The translations under genes were made by a program, and so were the position numbers. A stretch of DNA of 10,603 nt from contig JALGUK010000054.1 in the NCBI GenBank assembly GCA_029820875.1, positions 1-10,603 on the forward strand, written 5' to 3'. The notes under the pieces were generated by a model. The model did no database searches. It saw only the letters and a list, made by a program, of their open reading frames with translations, and was not told where the DNA came from. Shown here piece after piece: positions 1 to 10,603 of this stretch (positions are counted from its first letter, which is position 1; every line of letters begins with the position of its first letter). This DNA comes from Candidatus Zipacnadia bacterium (GTDB lineage: Bacteria > Armatimonadota > UBA5377 > JALGUK01).

Positions 1-2771
1 GTCGGATGCTTGTCGATTGGATACCCGGTACCCAGATACAGGTCGTCTTTTTCCGTCGGTTGGGAATTCAGAAGCAAAAACCGCAGCCCCAGGATGCTGG
101 CGCCCATTGTAACCTTGACGTTGGTGCCCGGAGTGGCGAAAACAACCGCTACCGGCTCGTAGTAGGAGACCCATTGCTGTGGTGGAAGCGGCATACAGTA
201 GCCGTACTCGTACGGCTCGGCGTCCGTGCGTGCGTCATAGATGTTAATCTCCTGCAGCAAAGCGAAGAAACGTTGGTCCACCATGTCATAGATTGTCATT
301 GATGTGCAGGGGAACATGACGCATGTAACCGGCTTTTCCTGGGTATCCATCGTAGTCTCAATGGCGTATGTCTTCGCACCATTGACGCCTTGATCGGGCG
401 CATAGACTACCGCGCCGGTATCCTCGTCAAGTAGATACCCTTCAATCGGGATTTTACCGGGCTTTGCCCGTACATTTGGCAACCCCTTCAACGACATCCG
501 GCCGTCCTCGCCCACGATGTCGAATATTTCATTGCGAACGCCCATCGAGGTTTTGACTCCGGTGCGTGCGACTGCGATAGCGCCCACGACGGGTTCGTTG
601 GGGAAGTAGCTGACACGCGGGTCGAACTCCACCAGCCGCCCGTCCACCTCGGTAAAGTTGTCTTCAAGATCCAGCTCATATAGGTTTTTGGGTTTGGTGA
701 TGTTTACCAGGTCTTGAAGCAGACAGGCTGTGAAGCGTGTCTGCCGATAGACATTGTTAATCTCTACGTTGTCAGGTATATCGAACGGTGTATCAACATA
801 AGGCCGGGAATCATTGATGGTAGCCAGTCCGAGGCCTGTCCTGCCCATTAGCGTGACCACCTCGTGGTCCATGGCCAACTTTCCCGGGAGGTAGACACGC
901 CAGTTCTTGCCCTGGATGGGGTTGATGCCGTCTACGAGTGCGGACTGAGGCGGGACCCCTAAAGCGGAACCTATCAGTTCGGTGTATTCGCGCGCTTTCT
1001 TGCCGATGTCGCTGAACTTCCATTGGATGTTCTCGTTAAAGTCGTACCCGTAACCTTTGTAGAAAATGCCGGTGGTCCCGAAGTGACTCGATAAATCCAA
1101 GCCGAAGAATGCGTATATGTCGTACTCGGAGAAGTCCAGTGCATCAGTGACCGCGATCAGAGCATTCTGAACCTTCTTGAGCGCCGCTTGCTGCTCTGCC
1201 ATACCTGCGTCCCTGCGGCGTAGCGGCCGGGTCTCGTCCAGAACATTCTGCAGCCTGTCGCAGGCCGCCTCCGCGGGAGGAATGGCCTGCTCCATCATCG
1301 TAATGAACTTCTTGTAGCGGATGAACTCCTTCTTGGTAATCTGCTTGTCCTCGTCTTTGCCACGGTTGAACTCCTCGACGCCCTGCTCGTCGGTCGGCGC
1401 CTCCCATGCCCTTCGGTACTCGCTTTTGGCCTTGCGAACCGTTGCGGTCATCTTGTGGAGCAGTTTACGCGTACTCTTGAGGGCCTTGTCCACCCGGCGC
1501 AGACCGACCATCTGCTCGTAAGTACGCTGCTCAGGTGTCTCCTGCTGCACCCCTTCGGTTTCGTACTCGCTCTTTTGTTCCCAGATCTTCTCCTGTGCGT
1601 CATCGAGCTTTCGTCGCGCTTGCCGGGCTAAGTCAAAAAGGTGCGTGACACGCTTCTCCGTCCGTGCGCCCCTGAATCGCTTGTAAAGGAAGTTTTTCAC
1701 GCCCGCGAGGCCCTGGAAGTGCCCCGCAGTGGCCAGGAATTCGATGGTCCTCTTGGGAGGCTGGGCCTTGAACGCCTTTGCTACTTGCAGCAGCGCGGCG
1801 ATGCCGCATGCGCTCTCGGCACCCGGGGCCAATCGGGGCACGAACGAAATCGAGTCATAGTAGGATTCGATAACGATATGCTGGCGCTTCAGGCGTGGAT
1901 CCGTGCCTTTGATGGTCCCGAGGATGTTGCGCCCTGTAACATTCTTCCACTTCATTTTGCAATCAAGGCGCACCCGTATGGTACCGTGGACATCCAACAG
2001 CGCAAGGAGCTTGTCACTGAGTTCCTTCGGCACCCAGAACCGCGGGATATCGGCCGGGATGCTGAGGAATTTCGACTCGATCTCGCCACGCAGTGTCCGT
2101 TCCGGCTCGATGAACAGAACCGCCTTGGCTCCCAGAAGCGGCGCGTTGAACCATTGTGTCCCGCAGTTGAGCTTGAGGAGGACGATTGAACCGTCAACGT
2201 CCTTGCCCGAGTACTCGGAGAGGGTGCTGTTGCCTGCATAAACAAGGGGGGCAGTGATACCTCCGGGGGGCGTTTGGCAGGTGCGGACCAGATTAGGCCA
2301 CAGGGCGAAAATCTGAAACTTGCCGAGCACCTTCCCCTCGCTCAGGATGGTAAGAGTGGAACCCTCGTCGACCGGCACCGGCACCGTAAACTCTTCGGTC
2401 GTGACGTTTTCAGGCCCGAAGATCTCGTTGAACTTGTTCAGAATGTATTCGCCGGCCTGCTCACACCCGGGGGAGCCGGTCATTCGGGATGCATAACCGG
2501 TCGCATCCACACCGCACCTGGCCATAAATGCGGTAGTTTCTTCGATCTCAGCGCGGCTCACCACAGAGGAGACAGCTTGATAATCCGTCTCGCTCTTGAA
2601 TGCGATTTCCTCTTCATCCATCCCCTGCGCCGAGCTGGGAGCAGTCACGGCGAAGAGCAACAACAATAGGAAGACACTTATCAGACCGTATCGTGGCTTA
2701 TTCAAGCCGAACCACCCACATCTTGGGTTTTGACACACCCGTAAGGCACCGGCTCGCACCCCGAGTTGCAT
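1..2771 (-). CDS. Exported M28-peptidase-like protein with degenerate metal site and coiled-coil insertion (C-terminus outside window)
   Basis: The frame is open from ATG 2771 to position 1 (923 codons plus two bases) with no stop, so the C-terminus lies outside. Residues 24-48 form a signal peptide: N-K-P-R-Y, a Leu-rich core, then PSSA before QG. Residues about 174-230 resemble a PA domain. Residues about 290-360 match the first half of an M28 aminopeptidase fold and about 545-680 the second half. Between them (about 364-543) lies a charged, Lys/Glu/Arg-rich helical insertion, probably coiled coil. The part after about 700 looks beta-rich and is not recognised. Metal positions are lost: HxD is Y304-Y-D306, the GADD-type loop is G-A-E319-S-A-C-G, the Glu-Glu pair is H351-F352, and the late His is V659 (Y-V-D-T). 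M28 catalysis is therefore unlikely. The gene follows the ABC ATPase by about 45 bases, suggesting a binding or scaffold partner of that transporter. Fold assignment is good; function is inferred. Confidence 0.85.
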   Translation of the reverse strand, partial: MQLGVRAGALRVCQNPRCGWFGLNKPRYGLISVFLLLLLFAVTAPSSAQGMDEEEIAFKSETDYQAVSSVVSRAEIEETTAFMARCGVDATGYASRMTGSPGCEQAGEYILNKFNEIFGPENVTTEEFTVPVPVDEGSTLTILSEGKVLGKFQIFALWPNLVRTCQTPPGGITAPLVYAGNSTLSEYSGKDVDGSIVLLKLNCGTQWFNAPLLGAKAVLFIEPERTLRGEIESKFLSIPADIPRFWVPKELSDKLLALLDVHGTIRVRLDCKMKWKNVTGRNILGTIKGTDPRLKRQHIVIESYYDSISFVPRLAPGAESACGIAALLQVAKAFKAQPPKRTIEFLATAGHFQGLAGVKNFLYKRFRGARTEKRVTHLFDLARQARRKLDDAQEKIWEQKSEYETEGVQQETPEQRTYEQMVGLRRVDKALKSTRKLLHKMTATVRKAKSEYRRAWEAPTDEQGVEEFNRGKDEDKQITKKEFIRYKKFITMMEQAIPPAEAACDRLQNVLDETRPLRRRDAGMAEQQAALKKVQNALIAVTDALDFSEYDIYAFFGLDLSSHFGTTGIFYKGYGYDFNENIQWKFSDIGKKAREYTELIGSALGVPPQSALVDGINPIQGKNWRVYLPGKLAMDHEVVTLMGRTGLGLATINDSRPYVDTPFDIPDNVEINNVYRQTRFTACLLQDLVNITKPKNLYELDLEDNFTEVDGRLVEFDPRVSYFPNEPVVGAIAVARTGVKTSMGVRNEIFDIVGEDGRMSLKGLPNVRAKPGKIPIEGYLLDEDTGAVVYAPDQGVNGAKTYAIETTMDTQEKPVTCVMFPCTSMTIYDMVDQRFFALLQEINIYDARTDAEPYEYGYCMPLPPQQWVSYYEPVAVVFATPGTNVKVTMGASILGLRFLLLNSQPTEKDDLYLGTGYPIDKHP

Positions 2772-2819: not shown

Positions 2820-3779
2820 TTATTCCTCTCCGTGTTCCAATGTACCGACTTCAAGCGCAATGTCCGCGCGCTTGTCAATCCTCTCAATCTTTCCGTCGCG
2901 GATGTGCACCACCCGGTCGGACACGTCAATCATCTTCAGGTCGTGGGTCGCCGAGATGATCGTCACGCCGCTCTCTTCATTCAGCCTGCGCAGAAGATCA
3001 ATTATCTCCTTGCCGGTGCGCAGGTCGAGGTTACCGGTTGGCTCGTCAGCCAGCACGATAGCGGGACTGTTGGCCAACGCTCGCGCGACCGCCACGCGCT
3101 GCTGCTGGCCGCCGGAAAGCTCCTGGGGCTTATGATGGAGGCGGTCCCCGAGTCCCACGATGTTGAGAAGCTCAACTCCCTTTTCCATCATCTCGTCGCT
3201 GGTCATACCGGCGAAAATCATGGGGAGCGTGACGTTTTCAAGTGCGGTCATGACGGGAATCAGATTGAATGTCTGGAAGATATAACCGATCTTGCGGCAG
3301 CGGAGCCAGGCCAACTCAAAGGCATCAAGCTGCGCCATGTCCACCTCGTCGATGAACACCGTGCCGGATGTGGGCTTGTCCAATCCGCCTACCATGTTAA
3401 ACAGGGTTGATTTTCCGGAGCCGGACGGGCCCATAATCGAGATGTATTCGCCCCGGCGGATATCCAGTTGGACCCCATCAATCGCGTTAAGCGCCTGGCC
3501 GCCCATCGTGTAGGTCTTTACGAGATCCTTCGTCCGAACGATGAACTCATGAGTTGTCGCCGAGGCATCCCCGAACTCCGAGAGTTTCTTTCCGTGCTTT
3601 TCGTGAAGGCGCTTCTCCACATCCTCGCTGCCAGCCACTCCTGCCACTGCCGCGGCGACTTGCTCCCCAAGAGGACCTCCGCAGTGGGGACAGGTAGTAA
3701 TCAGCCCCGCCTCAGTCACAACACCGGGCTTGGAGGGATCAATTTCCTTGTTGCAATGAGGACATCTGGGTAACGGCAT
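2820..3779 (-). CDS. ABC transporter ATPase, LolD/MacB/FtsE type, with N-terminal zinc ribbon
   Basis: This 319-residue cytoplasmic ATPase should power the FtsX-type permease encoded just upstream. All nucleotide-binding motifs are intact: Walker A GPSGSGKST (117-125), Q-loop Gln169, signature LSGGQ (221-225), Walker B IVLADE (241-246) and switch His279. The P-x-M-T-A-L-E-N segment after the Q-loop is typical of the LolD/MacB group. What is unusual is the front end. Family members are usually about 220-240 residues and begin near residue 78 here. This one adds about 77 residues with two CPxC pairs, C6/C9 and C30/C33 (each C-P-H-C), which should bind zinc, followed by an Ala/Val-rich and then charged linker. 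The start at 3779 is well supported by AGGAGG at 3788-3793, 8 bases upstream. The gene lies 150 bases after the permease stop and 40-42 bases before the pseudopeptidase. The substrate is unknown. Confidence 0.95.
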   Translation of the reverse strand: MPLPRCPHCNKEIDPSKPGVVTEAGLITTCPHCGGPLGEQVAAAVAGVAGSEDVEKRLHEKHGKKLSEFGDASATTHEFIVRTKDLVKTYTMGGQALNAIDGVQLDIRRGEYISIMGPSGSGKSTLFNMVGGLDKPTSGTVFIDEVDMAQLDAFELAWLRCRKIGYIFQTFNLIPVMTALENVTLPMIFAGMTSDEMMEKGVELLNIVGLGDRLHHKPQELSGGQQQRVAVARALANSPAIVLADEPTGNLDLRTGKEIIDLLRRLNEESGVTIISATHDLKMIDVSDRVVHIRDGKIERIDKRADIALEVGTLEHGEE

Positions 3780-3929: not shown

Positions 3930-4547
3930 TTAAATCTCCACCCTCAATGCTGCAGCAGGCGGTAACTTCGCGGCCCGCACGGCGGGTGGAATTGCGGCAA
4001 GCAGCGAGAGCATGACACCGATGAGGATTGAATACAGCAAGTACATTCCCATATCCGCCCAGCTCATCTTGAGCGTAACGGCCCAGCCGTGTTTGATGGC
4101 CCCGACCAACAGGCTCACCAGCGCTCCTAAAACTGCGCCTGTCAACGAGCCGAGAAAACCCAAGAATACGCTTTCGATGACGAAAAGCCGCACGATGAAT
4201 TCATCCAACGCGCCAAGGCACTTCATCGTACCGATCTCGCGATAGCGCTCGGTGACGGACATGAGCATGGAGTTGGTGATACCAAGCCCGCACACCAGCA
4301 AGGCCATCACTACAAGCCAGCTCTGCCGCGCTTGCATGGCGGCGTCCAGAGTCCTTTCCTCAACGGCGCGGGTAATCACTGCCCCCGTCCACACCGACAT
4401 CAGGAATGCAATGCCCAGAACCACGCCCGCCCCTGTGATTGCGGCTCGACCAAGCCGCAGCGTCACATTGCGGAGGCTGATCTTAATAGCTTGGCTCATT
4501 GGGAGCTTGATCTGACGCTGTTTTGTCGGAACGTCGGCGATACGCAT
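3930..4547 (-). CDS. Minimal FtsX-type ABC transporter permease without extracytoplasmic domain
   Basis: This 205-residue inner-membrane protein should be the transmembrane partner of the neighbouring ATPase. Four membrane segments are visible: about 35-57, 76-96, 117-148 and 167-187. The FtsX-domain core is clear: S-V-T-E-R-Y-R-E-I-G-T-M-K-C-L-G-A at 97-113, which in this superfamily faces the ATPase, and the C-terminal P-A-V-R-A-A-K-L-P-P-A-A-A-L-R pattern. MacB, LolC and FtsX proteins usually carry a domain of roughly 100-200 residues between TM1 and TM2. Here that loop is only about 18 residues (58-75), and nothing suggests a frameshift. The start at 4547 has AAGGTGA upstream at good spacing. 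The internal ATG at residue 17 has none. It follows the aminotransferase by 69 bases. Homodimerisation, or pairing with membrane segments in the unseen end of the M28-like protein, are both possible. Confidence 0.88.
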   Translation of the reverse strand: MRIADVPTKQRQIKLPMSQAIKISLRNVTLRLGRAAITGAGVVLGIAFLMSVWTGAVITRAVEERTLDAAMQARQSWLVVMALLVCGLGITNSMLMSVTERYREIGTMKCLGALDEFIVRLFVIESVFLGFLGSLTGAVLGALVSLLVGAIKHGWAVTLKMSWADMGMYLLYSILIGVMLSLLAAIPPAVRAAKLPPAAALRVEI

Positions 4548-6247: not shown

Positions 6248-8194
6248 TCAAAACGAAAAGACCTCGTGCCCGCGTACTCCACCGAGGGCATCCACGATGA
6301 CCCACATCCCCGCGCTCAAAAACTCCGCCAAAACAAGCCCCATGAACCCGGGAATCAGCTTCCTGTATATCTTGGGGCCTGCCAGACGCAGTACCAGGCT
6401 CTTGAGCAACCAGCCGACCAATATCGGGAACCAGAAGTTGATCATCGGCCATGAGGCACCCATCAGATACCCGATAGGGTGCAACGGCCACCAAAGAAAG
6501 TTACGGTGCATGAAGAGAATTCCGAGCATCGTGGCCGCGCCGGCCGACATCCTCACAAACGTCATCCCCGACGCATCCTCCCCGGCCACGTTCAGGTGGT
6601 TCACCCAGGTACAGTAAAGGTTCCGAGTATAGTAGGATGTGAACCCCGGGTTCAGCGAGGTTCCTCCGTAGGTGTACATCAGCCGCAGATACGACCAGTA
6701 CGAGCAGCCGATAGCTATCAGCACGCTGACTGCAAGCGCAACCGTGAGCTTCCGCCGCGACAGCCCTCCCGCATCGGCCATTCGGAGGCTCTGCATTATC
6801 TCCGGCATAAGGGGACTGCGATTGTCAAGCATGAAAAGATGGTCAAGCAGAGCGAGAATCGTGACCGATTGTGCACCCAGACGTCGCGAGCCCGTCGCCG
6901 CGAGCATTATGTTCAGCGGCCGGAAGGGGTGCTGCACGTAGAGCATCCCTCCCTCACAAACCAGCCGCACGGCCACAATATGCACCAGGAAGTAAAGCAA
7001 AAACAGCACCAGCGTGGCCACAAGGGACGCTCCCGCGAATCCACCCCACAGCGACACTACAGCAAGGCCTCCGGCGACGCTCCAGAAAGCCACGCGGTAG
7101 GGCAGCGCCTCGCGCGAATCGTCTCCCGCCGCGTGATGGCCAACCGCCTTGGCCACAACGTCACGCACCTGGCCGCGAGCCGTCCAAAAGCCGTACATAC
7201 CGTAGGCAATGATGCCGCCAATCATCTGGTGCGCCACGAATTGGCGCACAGGGTACGCCTGCACCGAGGGCATAGGTACGCCCAGACTTCGGCCGATTAC
7301 CTGCTGGGCGAGGAAGAAGAAAAAGAAGAACCACAGACTGAAAGACAGTTCACTGGGCAACAGGTACGCGAGGCCAATTATAGTAAACAGCAAGCGGATT
7401 CGCAGGGGCGACATAGCATCCCACGGACGGGTTGTCAGGTAAGTGTCGAGGGAAATGAGGTGGACGTTGATGGATGGCACAGCGGGAAAATAGTAGTGAA
7501 GGCCGTTAAGCGTATGAATCGAGAACGGCACTATGAAAAAGCTCCACATAATCTTATCGCGCAGCCACGGGGAAAGCGGATGTTTGGACTTGCCATAGGT
7601 CGCCATGCCGACGGGGAGCTGCACGAGCGGGAAGACCAGCTTCTCCTCGTCAACCCAGCGCTTGCGCAGGATTGCGCAAAGCCCGAAGAACACCGCATAC
7701 ACGGCCAGAACCAATACCGTAAACGCCCCAAGCGGCAGCAACCAGTCACCCCAGGGGATCGCTTGCCCGTCGCGGAGGCCCTCGTAAAGCGCATCAACGG
7801 AGCGTTGACTGGCGGGATGCAACCAATCCGGCCAGTACGGCTGAATTGTCTGTGCGTAACCGTTTTCAGGAGTCGCGAAGTAGAACGGGCCGGCGATATA
7901 GGGGATCAGAAGGGCCGTCAGGCCGAATGATGGAATTCCTGCTGCGACAAGCGTCATCGAGTATATTAGCAGCAGTTCGCCGGTGTTCATTCCCCGTCCC
8001 AGCTTGCGCAGAACCGCGTTTACAAACCCAACCAGCAGAAAGAACACAAACAAACTGCTGATGGGAAAGGCGGTCAACCCCACCCATGTCCCTCGGACGA
8101 CAAGATCGCCGTATGGAATCCCGATGGCCAGGAGTACGACAAGCGTGAGGCCGATTACAACAGCGCGGGTCGTCATCACAACCCCACTGTACAC
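6248..8194 (-). CDS. DUF6785/DUF6784-type polytopic membrane protein
   Basis: This is a 648-residue integral membrane protein with about 12-14 hydrophobic segments, including 11-27, 37-60, 73-100, 151-176, 267-297, two within 368-408, 482-505, 584-604 and 614-637. It resembles the family annotated DUF6785 (N-terminal part) with DUF6784 (C-terminal part). Recalled hallmarks are the early I-P-Y-G-D-L-V, the M-N-T-G-E-L-L-L-I-Y segment, the cytoplasmic V-D-E-E-K-L-V-F-P-L-V-Q-L-P (181-194) and the late L-W-W-P-L-H-P-I-G-Y (567-576). Biochemical function is unknown to me. The second motif recalls OPT-type transporters, so a transport role is possible. A six-Phe run lies at 289-294. The GTG at 8194 has poor upstream pairing. 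The in-frame ATG at 8176 (residue 7) has GGGG 5 bases upstream and may be the true start. It has its own upstream region, and the 392-base gap after it argues against tight coupling to the aminotransferase. Confidence 0.88.
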   Translation of the reverse strand: MYSGVVMTTRAVVIGLTLVVLLAIGIPYGDLVVRGTWVGLTAFPISSLFVFFLLVGFVNAVLRKLGRGMNTGELLLIYSMTLVAAGIPSFGLTALLIPYIAGPFYFATPENGYAQTIQPYWPDWLHPASQRSVDALYEGLRDGQAIPWGDWLLPLGAFTVLVLAVYAVFFGLCAILRKRWVDEEKLVFPLVQLPVGMATYGKSKHPLSPWLRDKIMWSFFIVPFSIHTLNGLHYYFPAVPSINVHLISLDTYLTTRPWDAMSPLRIRLLFTIIGLAYLLPSELSFSLWFFFFFFLAQQVIGRSLGVPMPSVQAYPVRQFVAHQMIGGIIAYGMYGFWTARGQVRDVVAKAVGHHAAGDDSREALPYRVAFWSVAGGLAVVSLWGGFAGASLVATLVLFLLYFLVHIVAVRLVCEGGMLYVQHPFRPLNIMLAATGSRRLGAQSVTILALLDHLFMLDNRSPLMPEIMQSLRMADAGGLSRRKLTVALAVSVLIAIGCSYWSYLRLMYTYGGTSLNPGFTSYYTRNLYCTWVNHLNVAGEDASGMTFVRMSAGAATMLGILFMHRNFLWWPLHPIGYLMGASWPMINFWFPILVGWLLKSLVLRLAGPKIYRKLIPGFMGLVLAEFLSAGMWVIVDALGGVRGHEVFSF

Positions 8195-8423: not shown

Positions 8424-8451
8424 GCAGATGGATTCACGCAGATGGATTCAC
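8424..8451 (+). repeat. Exact 14-bp tandem duplication over the mutS2 start codon
   Basis: The unit gcagatggattcac occurs twice in direct succession (8424-8437 and 8438-8451), followed by another gca. Each copy contains an ATG. Because 14 is not a multiple of three, the two ATGs are in different frames. Only the second (8442) leads into MutS2, while the ribosome-binding site is spaced for the first. Removing one copy leaves the same MDSRTLRVLEY N-terminus directly behind the site. Confidence 0.92.
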
Positions 8452-8735
8452 GCACACTTAGGGTTCTCGAGTATGATAAAATCAAGGCACTTCTGCAGGC
8501 GCAGTGCGTAAGCAGCCTCGGGGAGGAGCTGGTGCGGCGCCTGGAGCCGGCGGTGAACCCGCAGTGGGTCGCCGAGCGTCTTGCCGAGACGACCGAAGCC
8601 TGCGCGCTCATCGGTGAGCGCGGTTCATTTCCACTCCAGGGGCTTTGTGACGTCGGCGATTTGTGCCGCAGGGCGGCGATTGGAGCCACCCTCGACGGTG
8701 AAGACCTTCTTCGCATTCGGCAGGTGACGGGATGA
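8442..8735 (+). CDS. mutS2: MutS2 N-terminal fragment
   Basis: This 97-residue fragment carries the MutS2 N-terminal region: L-E-Y-D-K-I near the start, S-S-L-G, then E-T-T-E-A, F-P-L-Q-G-L-C-D-V and R-A-A-I-G-A-T-L. It ends at TGA 8733-8735 straight after I-R-Q-V-T-G. In intact homologues the helix following this point continues for roughly 14 more residues before the part resumed in the next frame. The ATG lies in the second copy of the 14-bp duplication and is poorly spaced from its ribosome-binding site. The fragment has no catalytic motif and is unlikely to act alone. Confidence 0.75.
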   Translation: MDSRTLRVLEYDKIKALLQAQCVSSLGEELVRRLEPAVNPQWVAERLAETTEACALIGERGSFPLQGLCDVGDLCRRAAIGATLDGEDLLRIRQVTG

Positions 8736-8769
8736 GCGTTTCCCGCGGCTTTCACACCTGACCGAACGC

Positions 8770-10416
8770 TTGGGCGAGTACGAACAGCTCGAGCGGGAAC
8801 TGCTGCACTGCATTACGGACGAAGGGGCGGTCAACGAGGAGGCGTCGCCCGAACTGCGCCGGCTTAGTGCCCGCGCTCGAATCGTACACGAGCGGGTCCG
8901 CTCCAAACTGGAGCAGATTCTCCGTGCGCCAGCGTACAGGATGGTTATCCAGGACCCTATTGTCACCATCCGTTCGGGCCGCTACTGCATCCCTGTCAAG
9001 GCACAGCGACAGGCCGGGCTTAAAGGAATCGTCCACGACCGCTCCGCCAGCGGCGCGACGATATTCCTGGAGCCGGAGACGGTTGTGGAGCTGAACAACG
9101 AAGTGCGTGAGATTGAGCTTGACCGGCAGGAGGAAATTCAACGCGTCCTGCGGCGGCTGACGCAAGCCGTCGGGGAGAGGTCACCCGCGCTCCAAGCCGA
9201 TCTCGATACTCTCGGGACGATTGATTTCATCGCGGCAAGAGCGCGGCTGACCGAGATGATGGACGGTATCGAGCCGAGGCTCGCGGACGATGGGGTTGTC
9301 AACCTCAAGCGCGCGCGCCACCCGCTTCTTTCGGGCGAGGTCGTTCCAATCGACTTCTGGCTCGGCCGGGAGTTCCGGACGCTGATTATCACAGGCCCGA
9401 ACACGGGAGGCAAGACGGTTACCCTCAAGACAGTGGGACTGCTGGTGTTGATGGCTCAATCGGGCCTCCATATTCCCGCTGACGAGGGGAGTGAGATCTC
9501 CGTTTTCCGTCAGGTCTTTGCCGATATCGGCGACGAGCAGAGCATCCAGCAGAACCTTTCGACTTTTTCCTCCCACATGACCCAGATAGTCAATACGGTG
9601 AAACACATCAAGCCCAATGCCCTCGTATTGCTGGATGAGATTGGAGCCGGCACAGACCCGGAGGAGGGCGCAGCGCTGGCGCAGGCGATTCTGCAGTACC
9701 TTCACGAGCATGGCGCGCTTACGGTCGCGACGACCCACTATGGTGCTCTCAAAACGTTCGCTTACAATCAAAGTGAAATGGAGAACGCGAGCGTGGAGTT
9801 CGACCCGCAGACGCTTCGCCCTACCTTCCATCTGCGGATTGGAGTCCCCGGCGCGAGCAATGCACTGCTGATCGCCCGCCGACTCGGACTTCCCCATGAC
9901 ATAATTAGCGCCGCGCGTGAAGGCCTCAGCGAAGACCGGATTGCGGTGGAGAAGGCCATCCGTCGGATGGAAAAGAGCCGGAGGCGCCTCGAGCGCAAGC
10001 GCCGTGCAGTGGGGCGAGACCAAAGTTACCTTTATGAGCTAACCCGGGAATACGAAGATAAACTCGAGACCCTTGAACAGCAACGCCGGATTGCGATGAC
10101 TGAAGGTTTCCGAGAAGCGCGTGAGGTGGTCCACCAGGCTGAGGAGGAGGCGAATGCCATCCTGGCGGAATTGCGCAAGCAGCCGAAGGAATCCAGAATT
10201 ACCCAACAGTTGAGGCGGCGCCTCATCGAAATGGACGAACAGATACGGCAGGTGCAGGTCAAGCACGCTCAAGCCGAGTCTCCGCCCACACCGCGCCGAG
10301 TCTCCGCCCACACCGCTGGAGCCATTGACATCGGTCGAGGCAGGGGAACGCGTCCATGTGCGCAGTCTGGACAAGGACGGGGAGGTCATCTGCGTGCGTC
10401 CGGACGGACGGGTTGA
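8770..10416 (+). CDS. mutS2: MutS2 central fragment: clamp/lever region, ATPase and coiled coil
   Basis: The family match is open from 8728 (E-R-F-P-R-L-S-H-L before the TTG at 8770), so 8770 is only a nominal start. Visible motifs are I-V-H-D-R-S-A-S-G-A-T in the lever region, Walker A GPNTGGKT (9394-9417), I-G-D-E-Q-S-I and S-T-F-S-S-H-M, Walker B L-L-D-E (Asp-Glu at 9634-9639) with G-A-G-T-D-P-E-E-G-A, A-T-T-H-Y, and I-G-V-P-G-A-S-N-A, all as in MutS2. A long Arg/Glu-rich coiled coil follows. After about 10295 the reading is out of frame because of the 22-bp duplication. The last 40 or so residues (Arg/Gly-rich, ending at TGA 10414-10416) are therefore not family sequence. The ATPase core is intact, so a translated product could still dimerise and hydrolyse ATP, but it would lack Smr. 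Confidence 0.85.
   Translation: MGEYEQLERELLHCITDEGAVNEEASPELRRLSARARIVHERVRSKLEQILRAPAYRMVIQDPIVTIRSGRYCIPVKAQRQAGLKGIVHDRSASGATIFLEPETVVELNNEVREIELDRQEEIQRVLRRLTQAVGERSPALQADLDTLGTIDFIAARARLTEMMDGIEPRLADDGVVNLKRARHPLLSGEVVPIDFWLGREFRTLIITGPNTGGKTVTLKTVGLLVLMAQSGLHIPADEGSEISVFRQVFADIGDEQSIQQNLSTFSSHMTQIVNTVKHIKPNALVLLDEIGAGTDPEEGAALAQAILQYLHEHGALTVATTHYGALKTFAYNQSEMENASVEFDPQTLRPTFHLRIGVPGASNALLIARRLGLPHDIISAAREGLSEDRIAVEKAIRRMEKSRRRLERKRRAVGRDQSYLYELTREYEDKLETLEQQRRIAMTEGFREAREVVHQAEEEANAILAELRKQPKESRITQQLRRRLIEMDEQIRQVQVKHAQAESPPTPRRVSAHTAGAIDIGRGRGTRPCAQSGQGRGGHLRASGRTG
10273..10316 (+). repeat. Exact 22-bp tandem duplication in mutS2
   Basis: A 22-bp unit starting gccgagtctc and ending cacaccgc occurs twice without a gap (10273-10294 and 10295-10316). 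Twenty-two leaves remainder 1 on division by three, so the second copy shifts the frame. With one copy removed, the reading runs H-A-Q-A-E-S-P-P-T-P-L-E-P-L-T-S-V-E and continues into the C-terminal MutS2 sequence without a stop. It lies in the linker between coiled coil and KOW-like part, which is weakly constrained. Confidence 0.97.
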
Positions 10417-10603
10417 TGTGCAGGTGGGCGTTATGCAGATAACGGTTGCCCTGTCCGACCTTCAGTACCCCGAGGAGACGCCGCAGCAACCGGCTCCGTC
10501 GCGGCGTTTGGAAATCCAAAAGGCTCTCCAGTTGCCGGACGAGCTTCATGTACGGGGGATGACGGTCGAGGAGGCCAAAATCGAGGTTGATAAGTACCTC
10601 GAC
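10316..10603 (+). CDS. mutS2: MutS2 C-terminal fragment: KOW-like part and start of Smr domain (partial)
   Basis: This stretch is open for 96 codons to the window edge in the third frame. It begins L-E-P-L-T-S-V-E-A-G-E-R-V-H-V-R-S-L, a KOW-like beta region typical of MutS2, with V-D-V-Q-V-G-V-M-Q-I-T-V as the next strands. Near the end comes E-L-H-V-R-G-M-T-V-E-E-A-K-I-E-V-D-K-Y-L-D, the opening of an Smr domain (L-D-L-R-G-x-x-V-E-E-A in homologues). The Smr catalytic G-x-G-x-G-x-L region would lie beyond the edge. It has no start of its own and is readable only if the 22-bp duplication is absent or bypassed. Confidence 0.8.
   Translation, partial: MEPLTSVEAGERVHVRSLDKDGEVICVRPDGRVDVQVGVMQITVALSDLQYPEETPQQPAPSRRLEIQKALQLPDELHVRGMTVEEAKIEVDKYLD

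What the first reader, a model, noticed from the sequence alone, without database searches (positions are those of the whole stretch)
1..2771. Large exported M28-like pseudopeptidase with an internal coiled coil
The scaffold of an M28 aminopeptidase is recognisable, with PA-like segment, both halves, and G-L-A-G after the former Glu pair. Yet the zinc and catalytic positions are Y304, E319/S320, H351-F352 and V659. About 180 helical residues are inserted between the two halves. A conserved but dead peptidase fold next to a transporter points to a binding or structural role.
Basis: partly seen in the sequence, partly recalled or inferred. Interest (0 to 1): 0.7.

Follow-up and report, generated by a model that had tools for sequence, protein, structure and literature searches.

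The report
Dead peptidase head on ABC permease
The gene encodes not a free-standing exported protein but the outer part of a very large membrane transporter subunit, whose peptidase-like head has lost the usual zinc site and which is almost always inherited together with a peptide-transporter gene.

The parts
3..2771 (-). N-terminal 923 codons of the M28-like/FtsX giant permease subunit (full length about 1702 aa in P0156; the rest lies beyond the window edge)
2628..2684 (-). hydrophobic export signal or anchor, residues 30-48
   Evidence: Kyte-Doolittle scan
1674..2600 (-). first half of the M28 fold with PA-like segment, residues 58-366 (Y304, D306, E319, R341, H351, F352)
1122..1673 (-). 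helical insert, residues 367-550, clade-specific
672..1121 (-). second half of the M28 fold, residues 551-700 (D559, E637, R656, D660)
3..671 (-). beta-rich ectodomain region after the M28 fold, residues 701-923, running on beyond the window
   Evidence: secondary structure of the model
2820..3779 (-). LolD/MacB-like ABC ATPase with N-terminal CxxC...CxxC ribbon, gene directly upstream
3930..4547 (-). short FtsX-type permease, 205 aa, without a large ectodomain; presumed second half of the transporter
6248..8194 (-). DUF6785/DUF6784 polytopic protein, possibly OPT-like; relatives lie upstream of another paralogue group of the M28-FtsX gene; its part in this system is a guess

Best explanation
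The ORF is the periplasmic head of a giant type VII (MacB/LolCE/FtsX-like) ABC permease subunit. The head is an M28 aminopeptidase fold whose co-catalytic zinc site has been replaced throughout the sampled family by an invariant acidic/His pocket. Partners: a short FtsX permease, a LolD-like ATPase, and an OPT-family peptide (or metal-chelate) symporter with which it is co-inherited. Proposed working: the former active site binds a peptide N-terminus or peptide-like chelate without cutting it; ATP-driven movement of the FtsX helices opens or closes the head and passes the ligand to, or gates, the OPT transporter. Shown by computation: fold, family-wide site loss, fusion to the permease (through P0156), operon, co-occurrence with the OPT gene. 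Inferred: topology, ligand class, hand-over, direction, energy coupling, and that the short and the giant permease form the heterodimer.
Against: No biochemistry. 48 of 80 loci show no ATPase, in part because contigs end. Of 56 loci with room, 7 show neither C1 nor DUF6785 nearby, five of them of Fimbriimonadales type (L038, L045, L046, L054, L064). The invariant acid/His cluster could be catalytic. Co-inheritance does not prove physical coupling, and OPT transporters are not known to need an ABC partner (recalled). PqqD-like and pilin-like neighbours in some loci are unexplained.
Confidence: 0.45

Rival explanations
1. The site is re-wired, not dead: H351, D559, D660 and E319 hold one metal ion and the head is a mono-metal hydrolase or transferase acting on peptides, with the ABC part as a lever.
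For: The replacing residues are invariant or nearly so and put acids and a His at positions that surround the metals in M28 enzymes. A one-zinc M28-like protein, CA_C2195, is in print (PMC4000134, passages seen).
Against: Catalytic E151 and ligands H97, E152 and H256 are all replaced; Y304 is F in 12 of 290.
Confidence: 0.2
2. A mechanotransmission machine for the envelope: ATP hydrolysis moves the head to regulate a periplasmic enzyme or lipoprotein traffic, as in FtsEX, LolCDE or YbbAP-TesA; the OPT partner recycles peptides that are released.
For: The ATPase's best NCBIfam match is LolD, and the permease profile hits MacB and LolC. YbbAP-TesA shows a type VII ABC system working with a hydrolase (PMC12646458, passages seen). 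A helical insert would fit a lever or docking arm.
Against: No wall hydrolase or adaptor was recognised among the neighbour clusters that were looked at (C1 to C6 and C10); clusters 7-9 and 11 and above were not annotated. The steadiest partner is a transporter.
Confidence: 0.25
3. An ordinary M28 peptidase gone bad by isolated decay or sequencing error.
For: The window's mutS2 reads in three frames, so indel errors may occur here.
Against: The site is lost in 290 of 290 readable sequences, and H351, D559 and D660 are among the 30 most conserved of 463 positions.
Confidence: 0.02

Closest known systems
M28 aminopeptidases (Aeromonas AAP 1amp; BSAP 6hc6; 2ek8)
   Same: fold over 270-390 aligned residues, PA-like segment, PGA and G-L-x-G motif positions
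   Different: dizinc ligands and the catalytic Glu replaced; long insert; C-terminal fusion to an ABC permease
Transferrin receptor 1 and nicastrin/nicalin (TfR1 as non-catalytic: PMC4000134 passages; nicastrin and nicalin function recalled)
   Same: membrane-tethered M28-fold ectodomain; TfR1 and nicalin are hit by fold or profile
   Different: eukaryotic; not fused to an ABC permease
Type VII ABC systems MacAB, LolCDE, FtsEX, YbbAP-TesA
   Same: FtsX-type permease, MacB-like periplasmic domain in some relatives, LolD-like ATPase
   Different: additional head of about 900 residues and three extra hydrophobic segments; presumed asymmetric pairing with a short permease; co-inherited OPT transporter
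OPT/YSL transporters (HvYS1 7wsr)
   Different: most C1 sequences are not labelled OPT by Pfam (7 of 120 are); bacterial; tied to an ABC subunit
CA_C2195 (DUF4910, PMC4000134)
   Same: bacterial M28-like domain with a reduced metal site
   Different: fused to a winged helix; keeps His/Asp/His and one zinc

Membership tests
Peptidase family M28 (as a fold/homology family) | M28 fold and Pfam PF04389 above cut-off | tested here: met
Active M28 peptidase | five dizinc ligands H97, D117, E152, D179, H256 | tested here: not met
   Y304, E319 (or one off), F352, D559, D660; 0 of 290 readable sequences keep three or more
Active M28 peptidase | catalytic Glu151 | tested here: not met
   H351 in 290 of 290
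Type VII ABC permease (MacB/LolCE/FtsX) | FtsX domain PF02687 | tested here: met
   in the full-length relative P0156, 55.9 bits against 25.5, and by profile to MacB 5lil; the window itself ends before it
Type VII ABC permease (MacB/LolCE/FtsX) | MacB-like periplasmic domain between TM1 and TM2 | tested here: inconclusive
   PF12704 above cut-off in P0039, below it in P0079 and P0111, not listed for P0156
Type VII ABC permease (MacB/LolCE/FtsX) | LolD/MacB-type ATPase encoded beside it | tested here: met
   gene 2820-3779, LolD 234.3 bits, best match but under NCBI's equivalog cut-off of 307.75; ATPase in 32 of 80 loci
Type VII ABC permease (MacB/LolCE/FtsX) | ATP-driven mechanotransmission | not testable with these tools
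   needs biochemistry or cryo-EM
OPT family (partner C1, outside the window) | OPT/YSL fold | tested here: met
OPT family (partner C1, outside the window) | sequence models PF03169 / TIGR00728 above cut-off | tested here: inconclusive
   7 of 120 relatives carry a precomputed PF03169 label; of 9 scanned, 7 of them chosen for that label, 5 pass the cut-off; three loci members gave no family; P0317 has TIGR00728 at 17.1 bits against 128.35
OPT family (window gene DUF6785, 6248-8194) | homology to OPT | tested here: inconclusive
   profile-profile to C1 prob 66.1, E 5.6e-5 over 446 columns in local mode, prob 11.6 in an earlier run with other settings; controls against the permease prob 0.3 and 0.1; no OPT match in Pfam

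The most novel reading that the evidence does not exclude
A previously undescribed energised peptide or metallophore transport machine, widespread in Armatimonadota and Latescibacterota and sporadic in Planctomycetota: a type VII ABC engine carries a re-plumbed M28 pseudopeptidase as receptor and drives or gates a separate OPT symporter, so that an ABC motor and a secondary transporter act as one unit.
Probability: 0.3. Interest if true: 0.85.

Novelty: new variant of a known kind. Interest (0 to 1): 0.62.

Why it matters
Many of these proteins bear the database name 'M28 family peptidase', which misleads: they are ABC permease subunits whose peptidase site is gone. A pseudopeptidase built into a type VII ABC permease and co-inherited with an OPT symporter would link two transporter classes usually thought to work alone, and would be a bacterial counterpart of the reuse of the M28 fold in transferrin receptor and nicastrin. 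It is present in 124 of 151 sampled genomes of Armatimonadota, so it bears on the basic envelope biology of a little-studied phylum.

Tried and rejected
Stand-alone exported protein: rejected, since full-length relatives continue into the permease. Isolated decay: rejected. Conserved coiled coil across the family: rejected. V659 as the former His ligand: replaced by D660 (alone was ambiguous). Pfam gave no family for C1 at first and none relevant at E up to 10 for the L003 member; the fold and wider relatives pointed to OPT. The first C1-DUF6785 comparison, with other hhalign settings, gave prob 11.6; local mode gave 66.1 with controls of 0.3 and 0.1. Measuring distances in the pocket was not possible, as model coordinates are not passed to scripts.

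Limits of the samples. The 80 loci (best 80 of 308) were found with a pattern holding YYD, so they cannot test position 304 without bias; the searches are not tied to that pattern, but only the best 120 of 306 and the best 120 of 1553 were seen (225 different proteins), and admits no protein over 1616 aa. The 299 rows are these 225, the window and 73 ORFs of the loci; P and L rows overlap, so they are not independent, and 9 rows lack the N-terminal part of the site. The ligand score used V659; at D660 none of the rows has His either. Tree: 71 of 74 eligible rows, quick method, with warnings on long branches; two of the 20 ATPase-upstream loci (L012, L016) did not enter it. Reference M28 proteins were picked by motif (6 from 30 loci) or by length and a lax motif (19 from 30 loci); it was not checked that each of the ten genomes is represented. 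Each genome set holds the carrier used as its centre.

Literature. Among the titles listed (51, 86 and 87 list only part of their finds) none was on an M28-FtsX fusion, and one search found no paper naming DUF6785 or DUF6784. Only passages were read of PMC12646458, PMC10290634 and PMC4000134. The library lacks most subscription papers, so absence in print is not shown beyond these searches.

Full report
What the ORF is. Pfam finds Peptidase_M28 at residues 282-391 (E 5.6e-11). A search of 5.8 billion proteins returned 306 relatives (120 listed; nothing over 1616 aa is admitted); most of the listed ones longer than 1400 aa carry both M28 and FtsX, many also MacB_PCD. A second search, with the permease part of a distant relative, returned 1553 proteins; among the 120 listed is P0156, 1702 aa, identical to the window ORF at 917 of 923 positions. 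P0156 has the FtsX domain at 1427-1539 and hydrophobic segments at 30-48, 1008-1026, 1036-1054, 1068-1086, 1134-1152, 1284-1302, 1423-1441, 1449-1467 and 1512-1530, of which 1284-1302 is marginal. I read this as export signal, periplasmic head, three extra TM helices, then the four-helix FtsX permease with a periplasmic domain after its first helix. The topology is inferred from hydrophobicity.

The lost site. Profile-profile alignment to 19 stand-alone M28-family proteins from the genomes and an alignment with six canonical ones give H97->Y304, E151->H351, E152->F352, D179->D559 and, H256->D660; D117 falls on or next to E319 because this family lacks one residue there. Over 299 rows including the window, 290 of them with residues at the N-terminal part of the site: Y304 is 274 Y, 12 F, 4 H; E319 267 E, 18 D, 5 other; H351 290 of 290; D306 290 of 290; F352 246 F, the rest C, H, G or Y; D559 294 of 296; E637 293 of 295; R656 295 of 295; D660 291 of 295; no row keeps three or more of the five ligands. 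Among 463 positions ranked by entropy, D306, H351, R656, D559, E637, R341 and D660 are within the first 30, while Y304 is 51st, E319 60th, F352 110th and V659 130th. This is a conserved pocket, not decay. It holds several acids and a His, so an altered metal site or a site for a positively charged group remains open.

The insert. Residues 367-550 are mostly helical in the model, with heptad periodicity at shuffle p 0.01-0.06 per helix. In a quick tree of 71 sequences the window lies in a clade of 19 (SH-aLRT 99), all with the ATPase upstream and all with inserts of 157-184 residues. Elsewhere it is short or of other lengths (39 residues or fewer in 96 of 121 rows), with at least six changes between long (90 or more) and short on that tree. 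It is a clade trait.

Co-inheritance. Armatimonadota: giant permease in 124 of 151 genomes, C1 in 121 of 151, all 121 within the 124. Latescibacterota (phylum of G005): 55 and 54 of 60, all 54 within the 55. Planctomycetota (phylum of G006): 8 and 8 of 59, the same eight, adjacent on one contig in seven of them by reading the coordinates. Together: both in 183 of 270, giant permease alone in 4, C1 alone in 0, neither in 83. Each set includes the carrier used as centre, the cut-off was 1e-20 for the first two and 1e-60 for the third, and genomes within a phylum are related, so the Fisher p (7.7e-27) overstates the case.

Reading. The best reading is a type VII ABC machine whose pseudopeptidase head binds a ligand and works with an OPT symporter. 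OPT carriers move oligopeptides and metal chelates (recalled; HvYS1 with Fe(III)-DMA is a hit), and the M28 pocket is built to hold a peptide N-terminus (recalled), so the ligand class is a reasonable guess. Direction of transport and the coupling step are not shown. Rivals are a re-wired mono-metal enzyme and a mechanotransmission role in the envelope, for which YbbAP-TesA (PMC12646458, passages) is a precedent of a type VII system with a hydrolase.

Novelty. No paper on such a fusion was among the titles listed, and one search found none on DUF6785, in an open-access library only. The parts are known families; their combination and steady pairing are new as far as these searches reach.

Noticed in passing
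window 8442-10603 (+): mutS2 is spread over three reading frames (8442-8735, 8770-10416, 10325-10603), by assembly error or real damage; only the middle piece was matched to a family, the other two are named by eye. Described only.
   Followed up: no
window 2820-3779 (-): The ABC ATPase carries an N-terminal CxxC...CxxC ribbon; 19 of 32 related ATPase ORFs have one (some of the 32 are cut by contig ends), none of them in a locus with the ATPase downstream.
   Followed up: partly
L041, L042 (13644-14054), L048, L051, L052, L062, L063, L066: Eight loci with the downstream arrangement hold a PqqD-like small protein before the short permease (cluster; Pfam PF05402 tested on the L042 member only), often after an unassigned 300-380 aa protein; PqqD hints at peptide binding.
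   Followed up: partly
window 6248-8194 (-); L020-L026, L028, L029, L031, L047, L069, L071, L074, L076, L080: DUF6785/DUF6784 proteins sit upstream of another paralogue group of the giant permease (16 of 68 loci with 1.5 kb or more upstream) and may be cryptic OPT-fold transporters. L027 is not among them.
   Followed up: partly
genomes G180-G216: Several Latescibacterota genomes hold many matches to the giant permease, up to ten in G190 (some may be pieces of one gene), which suggests a paralogue expansion.
   Followed up: no
L016:2730-7717, L064:7989-12579: Two relatives have the giant gene broken into several ORFs.
   Followed up: no
L004:15498-16319, L013:11816-12607: Proteins that look by eye like pilins with an N-terminal methylation motif follow the OPT gene in WS1-type loci.
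   Followed up: no
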